Part shown: positions 1-5,865 of the stretch, in pieces
Layout of the letters: each line of letters begins with the position of its first letter
How positions within the stretch are numbered: position 1 is the first letter of the stretch
From: Gammaproteobacteria bacterium
GTDB lineage: Bacteria > Pseudomonadota > Gammaproteobacteria > HK1
NCBI GenBank assembly: GCA_020444775.1
Contig: JAGRHX010000500.1
Coordinates: forward strand, 1-5,865
Length of the DNA: 5,865 nucleotides
Direction: 5' to 3'
Notes under the pieces: generated by a model
Databases searched by the model: none
What the model was told of the DNA's origin: nothing
What the model saw: only the letters and a program-made list of their open reading frames with translations
Position numbers and translations under genes: made by a program

Positions 1-1035
1 GACATGGCCCGTGCCCGGTTCGCGCTCGGGCAGCTGGACGAGGCGCGCGAGAGTCTGCTCGAGCTGCGTGAGGAGCGGCCGCCGGATGCGGCGCGCCAGG
101 TCATCGACGAGTATCTGCAGGCCATCGAGCAACGCCAGAGCGGCACCGAGCTGAGCGCCTACGCCGAGCTCGGGCTGGGTCATGACAGCAACGTCGCCAA
201 TGCCACCGCGCGCGAGAGCGTGTTCGTGCCCGTGCTCGGTACCAGCGTCAGTCTGTCCGGCAGCAGCACCCAGCGTGCCGATGCATTCGGCGCCCTGAGG
301 GTGGGGGCTCGCTGGGATCAGGAGATCGCCCGAGGCTGGTCATCCAGCATCGGCGCGGACATCCGCGCGAGGTTGTATCGGAAACGAGTCGAGTTCGACG
401 AGGTCGATCCGCAGCTGCACGGCACGCTGCAGTACCGGTCAGGATTCAACACCGTCGCGGTCAATGCACGTCATGAGCAGATGGATCTGGACTACGAGCA
501 GTACCGAAAGGTTCTGAGCGTCGGTGTGACCTGGATCCGGGATGTGGACACCAGCCTGCAGCTGGTCGGATTCGCGCAGCATTCGCGGGTGCGCTACACC
601 AGCGATGCCAACAGCTCGAGCGACTCCAATCTGTTCCTGTTTGGCGTGGGTGGCGTCTGGCAACCGGGCTCGCGCCGGCTGACCGCGTTGTCCGGTAGCG
701 TCTACGGCGGCCGCGACAACGACACCAAGGCTCGGATCGACGGCGACGGCGCCCTCGTCGGCCTGCGGCTGGGGCTCAACCACCGCATCTCGGCTGACCT
801 CGAGGGCAGCGTCGTCGGTGGCGCCCAGCTCACCCATTACGACATCCAGAACGGCTTGTTCCAGCGCAAGCGTAACGATCGCTTCGCCGAGCTGCAGGGC
901 GTGCTGCGCTGGCAGTTCGAGCCGCTGTGGAGTCTGTCTCCGCAGCTCAAGCTGACCCGCAACTGGTCGAACATCGACATCAACAGCTACCAGCGTCTGG
1001 AAGCCGCCGTGTTCGTCAGACGCGATTTTCGCTGA
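1..1035 (+). CDS. TPR and beta-barrel outer-membrane protein, Slam/DUF560-like (5' end missing)
   Basis: The reading frame is open from the first base, so the gene starts outside the window; 344 residues are visible. Residues 1 to about 47 are helical and look like the end of a TPR domain (ARARFALGQLDEARESLLEL, then a helix ending in EYLQAIEQR). From about residue 52 the protein becomes a series of alternating, aromatic-rich strands. It opens with AYAELGLGHDSNVANAT (GHDSNV at residues 60-65), an arrangement typical of the TPR-to-barrel junction in surface lipoprotein assembly modifier (Slam, DUF560) proteins. The C-terminus, VFVRRDFR, resembles an outer-membrane signature with the terminal Phe moved in by one residue. 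Slam proteins move beta-barrel-tailed cargo across the outer membrane. The membership call rests on architecture only; another TPR-plus-porin family is possible. The FecR-domain gene begins 92 bases downstream on the same strand with no terminator between, suggesting an operon. Confidence 0.72.
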   Translation, partial: DMARARFALGQLDEARESLLELREERPPDAARQVIDEYLQAIEQRQSGTELSAYAELGLGHDSNVANATARESVFVPVLGTSVSLSGSSTQRADAFGALRVGARWDQEIARGWSSSIGADIRARLYRKRVEFDEVDPQLHGTLQYRSGFNTVAVNARHEQMDLDYEQYRKVLSVGVTWIRDVDTSLQLVGFAQHSRVRYTSDANSSSDSNLFLFGVGGVWQPGSRRLTALSGSVYGGRDNDTKARIDGDGALVGLRLGLNHRISADLEGSVVGGAQLTHYDIQNGLFQRKRNDRFAELQGVLRWQFEPLWSLSPQLKLTRNWSNIDINSYQRLEAAVFVRRDFR

Positions 1036-1127
1036 TCGTCGAGTGCGGGCGCTCGGCGTTGGCCGGCGCGTGATGACGCAAGCTCGTCCAGACCGCTGAA
1101 CCGCGAACAATGGCCACAGGTGCCAAG

Positions 1128-2954
1128 ATGAACCGCCACGCTCCATCGCAATTCTGCTGCATCCTGCTCCTGACGCTGCCACTGCTGGTTGTCGCGAGGC
1201 TCGCCGATGCGGCCGTGGGCCGATTCCAGTTCGTGCACGGGCGGGTGCAGGTGACCAGCGCGTCCGGTGAGAGCCGCTTCGTGACCCGCGGCAGCCCGGT
1301 CGAAGGCGGCGATGTGATCAGCACCAGTGCCAGCTCGATTGCCCAGCTACGGATGATCGACGACGCGGTGCTATCGCTGCGTCCGGACAGCGAGCTGAAG
1401 CTGGACGAATACCAGATGTCCGAGCGCAGCGCCGAGAACCGCAGCGTCATGTCCCTGCTGCGTGGCACCTTCAGGGCGATCTCGGGCCTCATCGGCCGTC
1501 GCAATCGCAGTGGCTACCGGGTCACCACGCCGACCATCTCCATCGGCATACGCGGCTCGGACGCGCTCATCGGCCACGATCCGGTGAGCGGGCTGAGCGC
1601 GCTGCAGACCCTGCAGGGCAGCCACATCGTGACCAGCACCGATCGCAGTGGTGCGGCATTCTCACTGGTCAGTCGGGTCGGGGACGTGGTCAGCGCATTG
1701 CCCGATCAGGCACCTCGATTCGCCGCCCGATTTCCGTTCGCCAGCGGTTCGATCGGACCGGGCGCCGGTCGGGCGCCAGGCCCGGGCGGGGCCGGCGCAG
1801 GGCGGGGCGAGCCCGACGCCGAGAGCGGATCCGAACCCGGTCCTCCACCTGAGGCGGCCGCACCCGGGGACGGCGGTCCAGACGGGGCGCCCGGCGATGC
1901 ACGTCGGGGCCGCGACGGAAGAGGTGCGCCGCGCCGCCAGGCCGGCACCCCTGACGGACCGGAGCCCGCGCGGCTCGAAGCCGGCGACCCGGTGGTCGGT
2001 TCCACCGCGGGCAAACCGGATGATCCGATCCCGACCGCCGGCAAGCCGCTACGCCCGGTGCCACTCGCGCCGTTGCCCGGGCTGGCGCTGCTGCCGCCGG
2101 TGGAGAGCAGCCGATTACCGTTGTCGGTCGATACCGAGCAGGTCAGCTTGACCGCGCCCAAGGTGGCGCCGGTGGGGACCTCGATGGTCGGTGCCACCTT
2201 CGCCAAGGTCTCGGGTGAGACCGCCGCCAGCACCGGCACGGTGATCCAGGGCATCAACAACGGCCTGATCCTGGTCGATGACCAGCAATTACCGGTATTG
2301 GTCGGCACCGAGGATGCCGGCGGCAGCTTCCGCTTCGTCGCCAATCAATCCAAGCCGGTAGTCACCGGGCAGTTCTCGACGGGCGCCCAGTCCGGCGGTG
2401 TCTGGGGCATCTGGCAGGGCAACTTCGAGATCGTCGAAGACGGTGTGCCCCATCCCGGGTTGGGTGGTTTCCCGTTCGCGCTGTCGCCGAATACCACGAC
2501 CGTTGCCCAGTTGCAGAATCTCGGTGGTACCTCGTTCAGCTTCAGCGACCTGCGTGGCATCGCCGTGGTCGACCAGGACGGCGTATTCACCACCTCGCAG
2601 GCGGCGGTGGCCAATCTGCTGGGCGTGACCGCTTCGGGCAAGTTCGCGTCCGACCAGAGTCTTGGGACCATCGGCTACCGGGTGGTCGCCGCGGTCGGCA
2701 GTCAGCGCTTCACCGCGGCCAACGTCGACAGCGTCGGCAATCCACTGTTGCCCGACAAGGACCGCACGATCCGGGATTTCGTCGGCGGCCATATCAAGCT
2801 CATGAACCTGTCCTGCCCGGGGGGTTGCTCGTCGGATGCCAGGGCTATCGCCTCCGGTCAGTTCCTGGGCAGCCGGGCCGAAGGGCTCATCACCAGCTTC
2901 GGGCTATCGGACAAGGGCAAGGGCATTTCCGGGGTCGCGGTCCTGGCTCGCTGA
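1128..2954 (+). CDS. FecR-domain secreted protein with C-terminal beta-barrel-like domain
   Basis: 608 residues from the ATG at 1128, which is preceded by AGG at 1118-1120 (7-base gap) and starts directly on a signal peptide: MNR, a hydrophobic core at residues 9-25, and an ADA cleavage site at 26-28. There is no lipobox. An ATG at 1110 is in frame but adds six residues before the signal. Residues 57-150 are a FecR domain (GDVISTS from 61, a core ending TTPTISIGIRGS at 133-144). Residues about 207-325 are a Gly/Pro/Arg-rich, partly collagen-like linker. Residues about 345-608 are beta-rich, with GGVWGIW at 423-429 and GQFLGSRAEG from 577, as often seen at the C-terminus of periplasmic FecR-family proteins and reminiscent of TbpB-like barrels. 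The only cysteines of the mature chain are C563 and C567 (CPGGC). No sigma factor or TonB receptor lies beside it, so this is not the classical FecIRA regulator. It is probably exported, possibly surface-exposed with help from the upstream barrel protein; its ligand is unknown. Confidence 0.85.
   Translation: MNRHAPSQFCCILLLTLPLLVVARLADAAVGRFQFVHGRVQVTSASGESRFVTRGSPVEGGDVISTSASSIAQLRMIDDAVLSLRPDSELKLDEYQMSERSAENRSVMSLLRGTFRAISGLIGRRNRSGYRVTTPTISIGIRGSDALIGHDPVSGLSALQTLQGSHIVTSTDRSGAAFSLVSRVGDVVSALPDQAPRFAARFPFASGSIGPGAGRAPGPGGAGAGRGEPDAESGSEPGPPPEAAAPGDGGPDGAPGDARRGRDGRGAPRRQAGTPDGPEPARLEAGDPVVGSTAGKPDDPIPTAGKPLRPVPLAPLPGLALLPPVESSRLPLSVDTEQVSLTAPKVAPVGTSMVGATFAKVSGETAASTGTVIQGINNGLILVDDQQLPVLVGTEDAGGSFRFVANQSKPVVTGQFSTGAQSGGVWGIWQGNFEIVEDGVPHPGLGGFPFALSPNTTTVAQLQNLGGTSFSFSDLRGIAVVDQDGVFTTSQAAVANLLGVTASGKFASDQSLGTIGYRVVAAVGSQRFTAANVDSVGNPLLPDKDRTIRDFVGGHIKLMNLSCPGGCSSDARAIASGQFLGSRAEGLITSFGLSDKGKGISGVAVLAR
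1750..2110 (+). repeat. Low-complexity Gly/Pro/Arg-coding segment inside the FecR-domain gene
   Basis: About 120 codons dominated by Gly, Pro, Ala, Arg and Asp, with short runs of Gly-X-Y character (GDGGPDGAPGD) but no exact tandem repeat. The DNA is markedly more GC-rich than its surroundings and, for that reason, carries long chance open frames on both strands. It separates the FecR domain from the C-terminal beta-rich domain and probably acts as a flexible extended spacer. Confidence 0.7.
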
Positions 2955-3033: not shown

Positions 3034-3987
3034 TCAGTCCTCGTCAGCCGCCGATCTCGCTGCGTCCTGCTCGTGGTGCTCGCGTGCCTGCACCTCCAGG
3101 AACACCCGGGTGATGGCCGGGAATCGCGACTTGATGCGGCGTTCCAGTCGCGCCACCGTCTGCTCCACCTCGGCAAGACTGGTGCCGTCGACGAAGTCCA
3201 GGCTGATGTTGGCGAGCACGTCGTCGGGTCCGAAATGCACGGTCAGCAACTCGTTCACCGAGCGCACCGACGGCTCGCCGAGCAGCAGGCCCTGGATGCC
3301 CTGCACGGTGGAGTTGCGTGCTGATTCACCGGTCAGCAGGCCCTTGGTCTCATAGGCCAGGCCCATCGCGGTCAACGCGAGAATCACGCCGATCAGCATC
3401 GATGCCGCGGCGTCTGCCCATTCGATGTGCAGGAACTGTGTCGCCAGCAGACCGGCGAGCGCAATCAGCAGGCCGAGCATGGCGGCGCTGTCCTCGAACA
3501 GCACGGTGAAGACGGTCGGATCCTTGGAGCGCCGGACCTCTTCGATGAGGCCACGTTGACCGCGCACCCGATTGAACTCGCGCAGCGCCACGCTCCAAGC
3601 CAGACCCTCGAAGACCAGCGCGATCCCCAGCACCACGTAGTTCACCCAGAAGCTGGTGACCGGATGCGGGTCGTGGAGCTTCTTAAGACCCTCGTAGAAC
3701 GAGATGCCGGCGCCCAGGCCGAAGATCAGGATCGCGACCACAAAGCTCCAGAAGTAGAGCTCCATGCCATAACCGAACGGATGCGATTCGTCGGCGGGAC
3801 GCCGCGAGCGGGCGAGACCAAGCAGGAGCAGACCCTGGTTGCCGGTATCGACCAGGGAATGCACGGCCTCGGAGAGCATCGCGGACGAGCCCGTGTACAG
3901 GCTCGCGGCGAACTTGGTCAGCGCAATCAGGGCGTTGCCCGCAAGCGCCGCGTAGATCACCCGTTTCGAGCCAGCATGACCGGCCAT
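3034..3987 (-). CDS. Cation diffusion facilitator (CDF) transporter, ZnT9-like branch
   Basis: 317 residues, a normal length for a CDF exporter of divalent metals such as Zn2+ in the inner membrane. Six membrane segments are visible at about 10-30, 36-58, 80-98, 114-135, 158-182 and 187-210, followed by a cytoplasmic domain (about 225-305) and a His/Glu tail (EHHEQD). TM2 has the metal-site pair H43 and D47 (SEAVHSLVDTGNQ), and the following loop has HPFGYG at 69-74. TM5 carries E165-D166 (LFEDSAAMLGL) instead of the usual HxxxD/DxxxD, and TM6 has D192 in DAAASMLIG. The E-D variant and the sequence HPFGYGMELYFWSFVVAILI are characteristic of the SLC30A9/ZnT9-like group, so classical zinc export is not certain. 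The start is fixed by a strong AAGGAGG five bases upstream. A weak TAGGAT -10-like box lies at 4023-4028. It lies 97 bases downstream of vapC on the same strand but probably has its own promoter. Confidence 0.93.
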   Translation of the reverse strand: MAGHAGSKRVIYAALAGNALIALTKFAASLYTGSSAMLSEAVHSLVDTGNQGLLLLGLARSRRPADESHPFGYGMELYFWSFVVAILIFGLGAGISFYEGLKKLHDPHPVTSFWVNYVVLGIALVFEGLAWSVALREFNRVRGQRGLIEEVRRSKDPTVFTVLFEDSAAMLGLLIALAGLLATQFLHIEWADAAASMLIGVILALTAMGLAYETKGLLTGESARNSTVQGIQGLLLGEPSVRSVNELLTVHFGPDDVLANISLDFVDGTSLAEVEQTVARLERRIKSRFPAITRVFLEVQAREHHEQDAARSAADED

Positions 3988-4084: not shown

Positions 4085-4483
4085 CTACTCGCCGCCGAGG
4101 TGTCTCCACAGGAGGCCGTCGACCGCCTCGAAATGCCGGTCGAAGGACAGCAGCTGGCCTCCCGATTCCATCGCATGAGCGGCGATCCAGACGTCGTTGG
4201 TCGGAATCGGCGTGCCGCGTCGGCGTAGCTGCGCGGCGATCAAGCCGAAGCGCTCAGCGCTCTCCAGTGTGACTTCAAGCGTCCGGACGAACCTTCGGGA
4301 GAGGAACGCATCGAGCTGTGCTCGGTTCTCGTCGTAGCGGGAGCCATTTCTGAATCCGAACAGCAACTCGCCCAGCACGACAGCGGACAGGAGCACCGCA
4401 TCGGCACGGCGGACGATGTCTGCCACGGGCCCCCGGTCCGCCATCAACGCGGAGTAGGCTTTCGTGTCGAGCAGCACTCTCAT
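4085..4483 (-). CDS. vapC: VapC-type PIN-domain RNase toxin
   Basis: 132 residues from the ATG at 4483, which forms an ATGA overlap with the antitoxin stop (TGA at 4482-4480); a GTG at 4489 would add two residues but is less likely. The single PIN domain is complete. D6 lies in the first strand (MRVLLDTKAYSAL), E39 in VVLGELLFGF, D97 in TNDVWIAAHA and D115 in LLSFDRHFE. These are the four acidic residues that bind Mg2+/Mn2+ in VapC ribonucleases, so the toxin should be active. VapC toxins cleave tRNA or rRNA and stop translation; the target cannot be told from sequence. The overlap indicates translational coupling, which keeps toxin supply below antitoxin supply. No frameshift or lost catalytic residue is seen. 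Confidence 0.93.
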   Translation of the reverse strand: MRVLLDTKAYSALMADRGPVADIVRRADAVLLSAVVLGELLFGFRNGSRYDENRAQLDAFLSRRFVRTLEVTLESAERFGLIAAQLRRRGTPIPTNDVWIAAHAMESGGQLLSFDRHFEAVDGLLWRHLGGE

Positions 4484-4743
4484 CGCCACAGCTCGTCATC
4501 GATCTGCTCCATCGCCTCGATGGAGCCGAGGAACTCCGCCTCCTCTTGCCCCGTCCAGGAGCCGATGAACTCGTCGAGTGAATGGCCGATGACCTTCGAG
4601 TTCGCCCTTTCGTCATCAAGCCCCGCACCCCGTCGGATGAGCAGGACCGCCGCCTTGTTCAGCGAGATACCCTGCTCGCGCGCCAGCGCCTCGATCTCGC
4701 GCCGCAGGTCGTCTCCGAATCCACGAATGGTGAGCTGGTTCAC
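4480..4743 (-). CDS. vapB: VapB-type ribbon-helix-helix antitoxin
   Basis: 87 residues from a GTG at 4743. No in-frame ATG lies near; the open frame runs further upstream, but through the promoter and into the opposite gene, and the domain begins right at this GTG (VNQLTIRGF). Residues 3-8 give the DNA-contacting strand, 11-25 helix 1 (DDLRREIEALAREQG) and 27-42 helix 2 (SLNKAAVLLIRRGAGL), the ribbon-helix-helix pattern of a dimeric repressor. The tail from 43 is acidic (SLDEFIGSWTGQEEAEF, ending EQIDDELWR), as in VapB antitoxins whose C-terminus plugs the PIN active site. The Shine-Dalgarno sequence is weak (GTGAG nine bases upstream) and lies inside a near-palindromic candidate operator, so repressor binding would be tied to the translation start region. 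It is the first gene of the operon. Confidence 0.88.
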   Translation of the reverse strand: MNQLTIRGFGDDLRREIEALAREQGISLNKAAVLLIRRGAGLDDERANSKVIGHSLDEFIGSWTGQEEAEFLGSIEAMEQIDDELWR

Positions 4744-4747
4744 TTGC

Positions 4748-4758
4748 TGTGACTCACA
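4748..4758. promoter_or_regulatory. Candidate VapBC operator, proximal site
   Basis: TGTGA-C-TCACA is a perfect 5-bp inverted repeat around one central base. It lies five bases upstream of the vapB GTG and covers the weak ribosome binding site. Its core recurs at 4783-4790 in the same orientation and at 4847-4854 in the opposite one, as expected for a ribbon-helix-helix repressor site. This is inference from position and repetition. Confidence 0.5.
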
Positions 4759-4776
4759 TGCGATGTAAGTTGAGGC

Positions 4777-4805
4777 ACTATATGACTCACCGAACAGGCA
4801 GACAA
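4777..4805 (-). promoter_or_regulatory. Predicted sigma70 promoter of vapBC
   Basis: On the minus strand TTGTCT (4805-4800) is followed by exactly 17 bases and then TATAGT (4782-4777). The -10 box matches the consensus at five of six positions and the -35 at four. Transcription would start near 4770, giving a leader of about 27 bases before the vapB GTG. Confidence 0.55.
4783..4790. promoter_or_regulatory. Candidate VapBC operator, distal site
   Basis: TGACTCAC here repeats exactly the eight bases at 4750-4757, 33 bp away (about three helical turns). It abuts the TATAGT -10 box and sits in the spacer of the vapBC promoter, where bound repressor would block RNA polymerase. Confidence 0.45.
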
Positions 4806-4819
4806 ACCGGCGCGCCGGT
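4806..4819. repeat. 14-bp perfect palindrome in the divergent promoter region
   Basis: ACCGGCGCGCCGGT equals its own reverse complement. It is adjacent to the vapBC -35 box (4800-4805) and roughly 40 bp upstream of the possible selD -10 box, so it could be a regulator site for either gene. No known regulator is recognised. Confidence 0.5.
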
Positions 4820-4840
4820 GCTGCCGCGCTTGCCTCTCGA

Positions 4841-4870
4841 GGGCCGGAGTCACAGGGTAGAATCCGGCCC
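4841..4870. repeat. Inverted repeat around a TAGAAT box upstream of selD
   Basis: GGGCCGGA at 4841-4848 and TCCGGCCC at 4863-4870 are perfect 8-base inverted arms around 14 bases. The right arm shares its first base with the TAGAAT box at 4858-4863, so a factor bound to both arms would occlude the promoter. A GAGTCACA at 4847-4854, matching the vapB-proximal site in the opposite orientation, lies within it. No T tract follows, so a terminator is unlikely. Confidence 0.45.
4858..4863 (+). promoter_or_regulatory. selD: Possible -10 box for selD
   Basis: TAGAAT matches the sigma70 -10 consensus at five of six positions and lies 57 bases before the selD start codon. No convincing -35 is seen at 16-18 bases; TTGCCT at 4830-4835 is 22 bases away. 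It may be activator-dependent or weak. Confidence 0.35.
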
Positions 4871-4906
4871 ACGCGCCGTGCGCGAGGCACGGCCATCGAC
4901 GAACCC

Positions 4907-4910
4907 GGAG
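4907..4910 (+). promoter_or_regulatory. selD: Ribosome binding site of selD
   Basis: GGAG followed by nine bases and GTG at 4920-4922. This site supports the GTG start that places the TGA at codon 17, the same position as Cys17 of E. coli SelD. The nearby ATG at 4924 is out of frame and gives only six codons. Confidence 0.6.
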
Positions 4911-4919
4911 ACTCCAACG

Positions 4920-5865
4920 GTGGATGCAAACGAGCAACGTCTGACCGCGCTGTCGCACGGCGGTGGCTGAGGCTGCAAACTAGCACCGTCGGTGCTAGCC
5001 GAGCTGCTCTCCGCGCTGCCGCCGCATTATGCCGATCCCAATCTGCTGGTCGGCAACCATACCGCCGACGACGCCGCGGTCTATAAGCTGAACGATTCGC
5101 AAGCGATCGTCGCGACTACCGACTTCTTCATGCCGGTGGTCGACGATCCATACGACTTCGGCCGGATAGCGGCCGCCAATGCCCTGTCCGACGTCTACGC
5201 GATGGGCGGCAGGCCGCTGTTCGCGCTGGCCCTGGCCGGCGTGCCGCTGGCCAGGGTCTCGACCGAGACCATCGGCCGGATCTTCGCCGGCGGGGCCGCG
5301 GTCTGCGAGCAGGCCGGGGTGCCCATTGCCGGTGGACACACGATCGATCTGACCGAGCCGATCTACGGTCTGGTCGCGATCGGTGTGGTGCATCCTGAGC
5401 GGGTGCGGCGTAACGCCGATGCCCGTGCCGGTGACCGGCTGATTCTCGGTAAGCCGCTCGGCGTCGGGATCCTGAGCGCGGCCGAGAACAAGAACGAGCT
5501 GGACCGGGACGCCTACGCGCAGATGATCGCCACCGCGACGCTCCTCAACTCGGTCGGCGCCGCGCTGTCCGAGATGGAAGGCGTGCACGCGCTCACCGAC
5601 GTGACCGGGTTCGGACTGCTCGGCCATCTGCTCGAGGTGTGTCGCGGCTCGGCGCTGGGCGCCAGCGTCGAGGCCGAGGCCGTGCCGGTGCTACCGGCGG
5701 CGCGTGCCTACGCCGAGCGCGGCTACAACACCGGTGCCGCGGGCCGCAACTGGGCGAGCTACGGCGACCAGGTGGATGTCCAGGGGACGTTGAGCGAGCC
5801 CGTGCTCAATCTGCTTCGCGATCCACAGACCAGCGGTGGTCTGCTGGTGAGCTGCGCGCCGGAGG
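4920..5865 (+). CDS. selD: Selenophosphate synthetase SelD, selenocysteine-containing (3' end missing)
   Basis: SelD uses ATP, selenide and water to make selenophosphate, the Se donor for Sec-tRNA synthesis and for 2-selenouridine in tRNA; it acts in the cytoplasm. From the GTG the frame reads VDANEQRLTALSHGGG, then TGA at 4968-4970, then GCKLAPSVLAELL, and stays open to the edge (315 full codons). Read as Sec, the TGA is residue 17, the position of catalytic Cys17 in E. coli SelD (SHGAGCGCK), followed by the essential Lys20. D51 (ADDAAVY), D68 (TTDFFMP), D91 (NALSDVYAMGG) and D227 (TDVTGFGLLGH) fall on the same numbers as the Mg/ATP ligands of the E. coli enzyme, and DPQTSGGLL is near the right edge. 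The intact downstream frame with every motif argues against a pseudogene. Probably some 30 C-terminal residues are missing. The gene is divergent from vapBC; selA, selB or mnmH are not in view. Confidence 0.95.
4968..4998 (+). promoter_or_regulatory. Sec codon UGA with bacterial SECIS hairpin in selD
   Basis: The UGA (4968-4970) is followed by nine bases and a perfect hairpin: CTAGCACC (4980-4987), loop GTC (4988-4990), GGTGCTAG (4991-4998). The first loop base is G and the loop begins 17 bases after the UGA. This agrees with the bacterial SECIS model as I recall it: a small apical loop with G among its first two bases, about 16-37 bases downstream of UGA. The hairpin would recruit SelB with Sec-tRNA. 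It lies in coding sequence, encoding LAPSVLA. Confidence 0.85.

What the first reader, a model, noticed from the sequence alone, without database searches (positions are those of the whole stretch)
4920..5865. selD is itself a selenoprotein gene: in-frame TGA at the catalytic Cys17 position
The frame before and after the TGA at 4968-4970 is continuous SelD sequence, SHGGG-U-GCK against SHGAG-C-GCK in E. coli. U17, K20, D51, D68, D91 and D227 all fall on E. coli numbering. The enzyme needed to make selenocysteine would then depend on selenocysteine for its own synthesis, an autocatalytic loop that also acts as a selenium switch. Sec-type SelD is known in some bacteria, so the principle is not new, but this gene would be truncated or misannotated by standard callers.
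Basis: partly seen in the sequence, partly recalled or inferred. Interest (0 to 1): 0.85.

Follow-up and report, generated by a model that had tools for sequence, protein, structure and literature searches.

The report
Selenocysteine-encoding selD gene
The gene for the enzyme that activates selenium carries a UGA codon where its key cysteine should be, so the cell very probably needs selenocysteine to make the very enzyme that supports selenocysteine synthesis; this arrangement is known elsewhere, and here it appears in a group of bacteria where gene catalogues cut the protein short.

Summary
A GTG-started selD frame (4920 to the window's end) is interrupted only by TGA at 4968-4970, at E. coli SelD position 17; the named catalytic residues match. 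It is almost certainly a selenocysteine codon. Of 211 distinct SelD proteins listed in two searches, 102 are truncated and all 102 begin after residue 17, as expected if callers stop at a conserved UGA. DNA shows HGGG-TGA-GCK in 26 of 399 genomes of one order (Burkholderiales, by inference); tRNA-Sec, selB and selA are in 25, 24 and 25 of them, against 10 of 24 Cys-SelD controls. A hairpin fitting the published bacterial SECIS model follows the UGA; in relatives this stretch is constrained at codon level. The window's own genome is not held, so its selABC could not be tested. Sec-type SelD and the autoregulation idea are old. New here: a large, truncated-in-databases set of Sec-SelDs related to betaproteobacterial Cys-SelD, the window's clade being apparently converted independently of group B and of A and B together (AU p 0.008 and 0.012). 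New member of a known kind.

The parts
4920..5865 (+). selD (selenide, water dikinase) coding sequence, GTG start, 3' end cut by the window
4907..4910 (+). GGAG, possible Shine-Dalgarno sequence, 9 nt before the GTG
   Evidence: read from the sequence
4968..4970 (+). in-frame TGA at SelD residue 17 (catalytic Cys/Sec position), read as selenocysteine codon
4977..4979 (+). codon of K20, lysine of the U/C-G-C-K motif
4980..4998 (+). SECIS-like hairpin: 8 Watson-Crick pairs, loop GUC at 4988-4990, 17 nt between UGA and loop
   Evidence: model constraints from PMC13188914

Best explanation
The gene makes a selenocysteine-containing selenophosphate synthetase. The ribosome meets UGA 17; SelB with Sec-tRNA(Sec), tethered by the hairpin at 4980-4998, inserts selenocysteine instead of terminating, and the Sec side chain in the N-terminal loop (with K20) takes the catalytic role that Cys17 has in E. 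coli SelD. [quoted passage not shown] Shown: frame, homology, UGA in related genes, machinery in their genomes, hairpin. Inferred: recoding in this organism, enzyme activity, and any regulatory effect of the loop.
For: Intact SelD on both sides of the TGA. 102 of 211 distinct listed homologues are truncated, all starting at residue 21 or later (66 at residue 25, 25 at residue 29). HGGG-TGA-GCK in 26 of 399 genomes of one order, and the HGAG form in 1 of 369 of its class; all 27 are open for 330-349 codons after the TGA. tRNA-Sec 25/26, selB 24/26, selA 25/26 in the 26, against 10/24 each in Cys-SelD genomes of the order (Fisher p 2.7e-5, 1.8e-4, 2.7e-5). Folding of the 45 nt from the UGA is stronger than synonymous randomisations in 28 Sec genes (mean z -1.19) and not in 109 Cys genes (0.01) (p 5e-9). 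In the 26 Sec relatives the two most codon-conserved 8-codon windows of 241 start at codons 22 and 21 (0.82 each; 0.52 in the rest), with codons 24-27 unchanged in all comparable pairs; in Cys genes those four codons score 0.73, 0.72, 0.39 and 0.34.
Against: The window's genome is not held, so its selA, selB and selC were not seen, and no DNA from its own clade was obtained: its close relatives are truncated proteins whose stop codon is inferred. The hairpin alone is weak by a permissive count: 1432 of 20,000 synonymous randomisations, and 1 of 109 Cys genes, have a stem of 8 or more with a G[GU] loop if G-U pairs count (2 of 20,000 and 0 of 109 with Watson-Crick pairs only, a criterion chosen after seeing the hairpin), and 8 of 200 shuffles fold as well. 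It lies 3 nt closer to the UGA than in most DNA-verified relatives and lacks their bulge. In Cys genes, too, the most codon-conserved window begins at the site (codons 18-25, 0.70), and in Sec group A alone (11 pairs) the site is not first.
Confidence: 0.94

Rival explanations
1. Sequencing or assembly error: the true codon is TGC/TGT and the gene is an ordinary Cys-SelD.
For: Most SelD genes met in sampled genomes carry Cys: of 54 strong matches in 398 genomes of the phylum, the 30 fetched as loci show the Cys motif and the other 24 lie in open frames of at least 348 codons. The window is a single sequence.
Against: The nearest relatives are a clade of proteins all cut after residue 17; errors would not be shared across many separate metagenome proteins. 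DNA-verified TGA copies exist in 26 other genomes of one order.
Confidence: 0.03
2. Pseudogene or programmed truncation: the UGA terminates and a shorter SelD starts at GTG 4992 (residue 25).
For: A frame of 291 codons from GTG 4992 to the window's end exists, and 66 of 102 truncated relatives are called from the equivalent start.
Against: The product would lack residue 17 and K20, both needed for catalysis (recalled for E. coli SelD). The codons before the TGA keep RLTxLSHGGG, and the frame after it shows no decay. Codon conservation and folding after the UGA in relatives argue for an RNA element there.
Confidence: 0.02
3. UGA is a sense codon for another amino acid, or is suppressed by a non-Sec tRNA.
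For: None specific.
Against: Other gene frames in the window end at TGA as an ordinary stop (FecR-domain gene at 2952-2954, SlipAM-like gene at 1033-1035). Nearly all related TGA-selD genomes carry a Sec system, and the aligned residue is Cys elsewhere.
Confidence: 0.01

Closest known systems
   Same: UGA at the same position, HGAG-U-GCK, and selA, selB and tRNA-Sec in the genome.
   Different: 51% identical to the window after the UGA, on a very long branch of its own; its 45 nt after the UGA fold no better than synonymous controls (z -0.07). PMC4561486 (passages) describes the Pasteurellales case as a Cys-to-Sec conversion.
Cys-type SelD of Burkholderiales and of E. coli (3u0o)
   Same: Same family, same residues apart from 17; the Burkholderiales loci are 61-68% identical, the best Cys protein listed 69% (P0007).
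   Different: Cys at 17; no enhanced folding after it.
Sec-type SelD in the 26 genomes of groups A and B (loci L125-L150)
   Same: Sec-SelD with SECIS-like hairpin and, in nearly all, the Sec machinery.
   Different: 60-65% identical; the AU test rejects the window with group B as one clade (p 0.008); hairpin loop 3 nt further from the UGA.
Sec-type SelD of Deltaproteobacteria and Clostridia
   Same: Sec in SelD is long known there (table in PMC1794560, passages).
   Different: Not compared by sequence here.

Membership tests
SelD / selenophosphate synthetase | Scores above NCBIfam equivalog cut-offs for SelD | tested here: met
   486 (cut-off 299) and 416 bits (cut-off 125)
SelD / selenophosphate synthetase | Cys/Sec17-G-C-K20 loop and conserved aspartates | tested here: met
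   U17, K20, D51, D68, D91, D227 at E. coli numbering
SelD / selenophosphate synthetase | Makes selenophosphate from selenide and ATP | not testable with these tools
   needs an enzyme assay
Bacterial selenoprotein gene | In-frame UGA aligned with a redox Cys of homologues | tested here: met
Bacterial selenoprotein gene | bSECIS: loop 3-9 nt, stem 4-16 bp, G in first two loop positions, 16-37 nt spacing, MFE at most -7.5 (PMC13188914, passages) | tested here: met
   loop GUC, 8 bp, spacing 17 nt, -19.6 kcal/mol; the model by itself discriminates weakly
Bacterial selenoprotein gene | UGA conserved in relatives | tested here: met
   26 DNA-verified genomes in one order; in the window's own clade only inferred from truncated proteins
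Bacterial selenoprotein gene | selA, selB and selC in the same genome | not testable with these tools
   window genome not held; selA, selB, tRNA-Sec in 25, 24, 25 of 26 related genomes
Bacterial selenoprotein gene | Selenium in the protein | not testable with these tools
   needs mass spectrometry or 75Se labelling

The most novel reading that the evidence does not exclude
SelD in betaproteobacteria-related lineages has moved between Cys and Sec several times, and in most of the Sec-SelD genomes the whole Sec apparatus is kept mainly for SelD itself (and through it for selenouridine in tRNA) rather than for formate dehydrogenase: a nearly self-serving use of the 21st amino acid. The window would belong to one such independently converted lineage.
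Probability: 0.25. Interest if true: 0.6.

Novelty: new member of a known kind. Interest (0 to 1): 0.38.

Why it matters
It indicates that Sec-type SelD is common, and cut short in databases, in lineages close to betaproteobacteria, for which a 2006 survey listed a single selenoprotein family (PMC1794560, passages). It gives sets of Cys- and Sec-SelD close enough for testing why a selenium enzyme would itself be made selenium-dependent, and whether the loop works as a switch.

Tried and rejected
Own genome: not held. A viral scan found no relative. The 25 listed plasmid matches of 167 were 54-62% identical and their codon 17 was not inspected. The CDF gene was used to try to place the organism: nearest relatives unnamed, the four organism names in the list alphaproteobacterial; its nearest relative P0122 as query gave at best 63% in 398 genomes of the phylum. 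Inconclusive; the organism remains unplaced. A second draw from the order repeated part of the first sample and gave nothing new. The two Rfam matches in the window are below their gathering scores; Rfam on three relative loci found nothing. The promoter/terminator scan of 4700-5100 gave one minus-strand promoter-like match and no terminator. A test of window plus group A as one clade was started and did not finish; it was not run again. Structure prediction was not used, since solved SelD structures exist. The covariation tools were not used, the relatives' hairpin being almost invariant.

Rows left out: 348 SelD sequences were reduced to 80 representatives before the tree, then P0282 was dropped; six duplicate loci were dropped before that; 115 Cys sites were reduced to 109 different ones. 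The window and L086 were not in the codon-conservation test. Three genomes with tRNA-Sec model scores of 47-49 bits (G1077, G001, G625), over the gathering score of 47, were not counted as having tRNA-Sec; their matches look like the serine-type tRNAs that the model also hits in every genome (my judgement).

Full report
Observation. Window 4920-5865 read with TGA as a residue gives 315 residues with one UGA, at residue 17. The product is SelD by two NCBIfam equivalogs (486 and 416 bits) and aligns to E. coli SelD (3u0o) from residue 3 to the window's end with E = 1e-99, SHGGG-U-GCK opposite SHGAG-C-GCK. K20, D51, D68, D91 and D227 fall on E. coli numbering. A GGAG precedes the GTG start by nine bases. 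The gene is cut by the window's end.

Relatives at protein level. Of the 120 homologues listed by the first search (7999 scored), 21 are 324-326 aa long and begin at the residue equivalent to 25 of the window. They are 68-72% identical over 92% of the query. The best-scoring hit in that list is a Cys-SelD (P0002, 68% over the whole length), and the best Cys identity is 69% (P0007); compared only over the part after the UGA, the 24 best matches are all truncated proteins and P0007 comes next. Over two searches 211 distinct homologues were listed: 109 carry Cys and 102 are truncated; all 102 begin at residue 21 or later (5 at 21, 66 at 25, 25 at 29, 1 at 30, 4 at 33, 1 at 42). This is what gene callers would do with a conserved stop at residue 17, but the stop itself is inferred for these. 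Several lie on long contigs (P0248 8.7 Mb, P0025 4.7 Mb, P0253 3.4 Mb), so truncation by contig ends does not explain them.

Relatives at DNA level. The pattern HG[GA]G-TGA-GCK was found in 1 of 369 genomes of the class of the Nitrotoga genome G001 (G257, which I take for a Pasteurellaceae) and in 26 of 399 genomes of its order. The order is Burkholderiales in GTDB by my recollection; the tool names no groups. All 27 have an open frame of 330-349 codons after the TGA and an upstream start codon. Of 398 genomes of the phylum 54 had a strong SelD match; the 30 fetched as loci show the Cys motif and the other 24 are in open frames of at least 348 codons. None of the 26 belongs to the window's own clade; they are 60-65% identical to it.

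Machinery. In the 26 TGA-selD genomes tRNA-Sec (over 70 bits) was found in 25, SelB over its cut-off in 24, SelA over its cut-off in 25. The misses are G1077 (tRNA and selB; its selA lies at a contig edge) and G878 (selA and selB; tRNA present); both have contig numbers in the hundreds, so are fragmented. In 24 Cys-SelD genomes of the same order the numbers are 10, 10 and 10, the same ten genomes each time (Fisher p 2.7e-5, 1.8e-4, 2.7e-5). Weaker tRNA matches (about 40-51 bits) occur in every genome, some over the gathering score of 47; 39 of 51 genomes have a match over it, and three of these (G1077, G001, G625) have none over 50 bits and were not counted. For the window's genome none of this can be tested.

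SECIS. The 48 nt from the TGA fold at -19.6 kcal/mol (z -1.74 against dinucleotide shuffles, 8 of 200 as good), with an 8-bp stem, loop GUC and 17 nt between UGA and loop. PMC13188914 (passages) gives the bacterial model as loop 3-9 nt, stem 4-16 bp, G in the first two loop positions, spacing 16-37 nt, MFE at most -7.5; the window meets each. Discriminating power: with G-U pairs allowed, 1432 of 20,000 synonymous randomisations and 1 of 109 Cys genes reach 8 pairs with a G[GU] loop; with Watson-Crick pairs only, 2 of 20,000 and 0 of 109 (longest 5); the strict criterion was chosen after seeing the hairpin. Ignoring the loop rule 2586 of 20,000 reach 8 pairs, and longer stems occur elsewhere in the gene. 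Better evidence comes from the set: folding z against synonymous controls averages -1.19 in 28 Sec genes and 0.01 in 109 Cys genes (p 5e-9; z under -1.5 in 10 of 28 and 5 of 109; the window -2.34, the Pasteurellaceae gene -0.07), though related sequences are not independent. In 26 Sec relatives the 8-codon windows starting at codons 22 and 21 have the highest same-codon fractions of 241 windows (0.82; 0.52 in the rest), with codons 24-27 identical in all comparable pairs. In 109 Cys genes the highest window also begins at the site (codons 18-25, 0.70), carried by the G-C-K codons; their codons 24-27 score 0.73, 0.72, 0.39 and 0.34, and codons 18-30 together 0.61 against 0.55 elsewhere. Group A taken alone (11 pairs) does not put the site first. 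The common hairpin of the relatives is CGC-CRGC-GKU-GCUG-A-GCG with the loop 3 nt further on.

Evolution. In a tree of 79 representatives the window stands beside 11 truncated proteins (support 100/95) inside a larger set of truncated and a few Cys-SelDs, apart from the two DNA-verified Sec groups (A: L125, L126, L129, L132; B: 13 representatives). The label Cys against Sec/truncated needs 6 changes, 4 with DNA-verified rows only. Holding all Sec and truncated rows as one clade is rejected (p 7.9e-5; this set includes the long Pasteurellaceae branch); window with A and B, p 0.012; window with B, p 0.008; A with B not rejected, p 0.456; window with A was not finished. The groups were named after seeing the tree, the bootstrap had not settled, and counts of changes cannot tell gain from loss. 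Independent Cys-to-Sec conversion in the window's clade is the simpler reading, not proven.

Literature. PMC4561486 (passages) reports Sec in 19% of the SelD genes of its reference prokaryotes, always at the same position, and states that in Gammaproteobacteria Sec forms are almost uniquely in Pasteurellales, a Cys-to-Sec conversion. PMC1794560 (passages) lists one selenoprotein family for Betaproteobacteria, names FdhA as the only selenoprotein of the Sec-decoding organisms there, and already discusses SelD as the single selenoprotein of some species. Searches of the held library for SelD and selenoprotein with Betaproteobacteria gave 5 papers and for SelD and selenocysteine with Burkholderiales none; in the passages I read of three of the five there is no report of Sec-SelD in betaproteobacteria. 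Supplements could not be read, so it may be in print. The autoregulation idea is in the title of Guimaraes et al. 1996 (seen as a reference).

What the Sec system serves in relatives. A formate dehydrogenase alpha (TIGR01553) with one in-frame TGA was found in 10 of 10 machinery-positive Cys-SelD genomes and in 6 of 26 Sec-SelD genomes; 19 of 26 had no match at E 1e-100 and G828 only a partial one without the N-terminal part (Fisher p 3.2e-5 with G828 counted as lacking; that the TGA is the Sec site was not checked). In 7 of the 19, all 21 matches of the other formate dehydrogenase family (TIGR01591; 7 of them over its cut-off) were free of stops. Other selenoproteins were not searched. selU (mnmH) lies divergently next to selD in the three loci tested, so selenophosphate there also serves tRNA selenouridine. 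The window does not show selU upstream; it has a VapC-like gene, a short gene before it and a CDF transporter.

Verdict. A Sec-type SelD gene (confidence 0.94), new member of a known kind. The loop 'SelD needs Sec, Sec needs SelD' follows from the pathway; its action as a selenium switch is untested.

Noticed in passing
SelD may be what keeps the Sec system there.
   Followed up: partly
database proteins P0251-P0332: A second large set of truncated SelDs (mostly 316-329 aa) outside the window's clade suggests many more unannotated Sec-SelDs.
   Followed up: partly
L184, L188, L191: selU (mnmH) is divergent from Sec-selD, its frame starting about 80-160 bases upstream of the TGA; the window has no selU at that place.
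   Followed up: partly
window 4085-4740, minus strand: VapC-like PIN-domain gene (4085-4489) with a short, possibly antitoxin gene before it (4480-4740, no NCBIfam match), divergent from selD.
   Followed up: no
window 1-2954, plus strand: SlipAM-like outer-membrane gene (PF04575) followed by a FecR-domain protein of 614 aa with a Gly/Pro-rich middle; possibly a surface-protein pair.
   Followed up: no
window 3034-3987, minus strand: CDF metal transporter whose few named close relatives are alphaproteobacterial while SelD is nearest to betaproteobacterial proteins among named ones; the organism could not be placed.
   Followed up: partly
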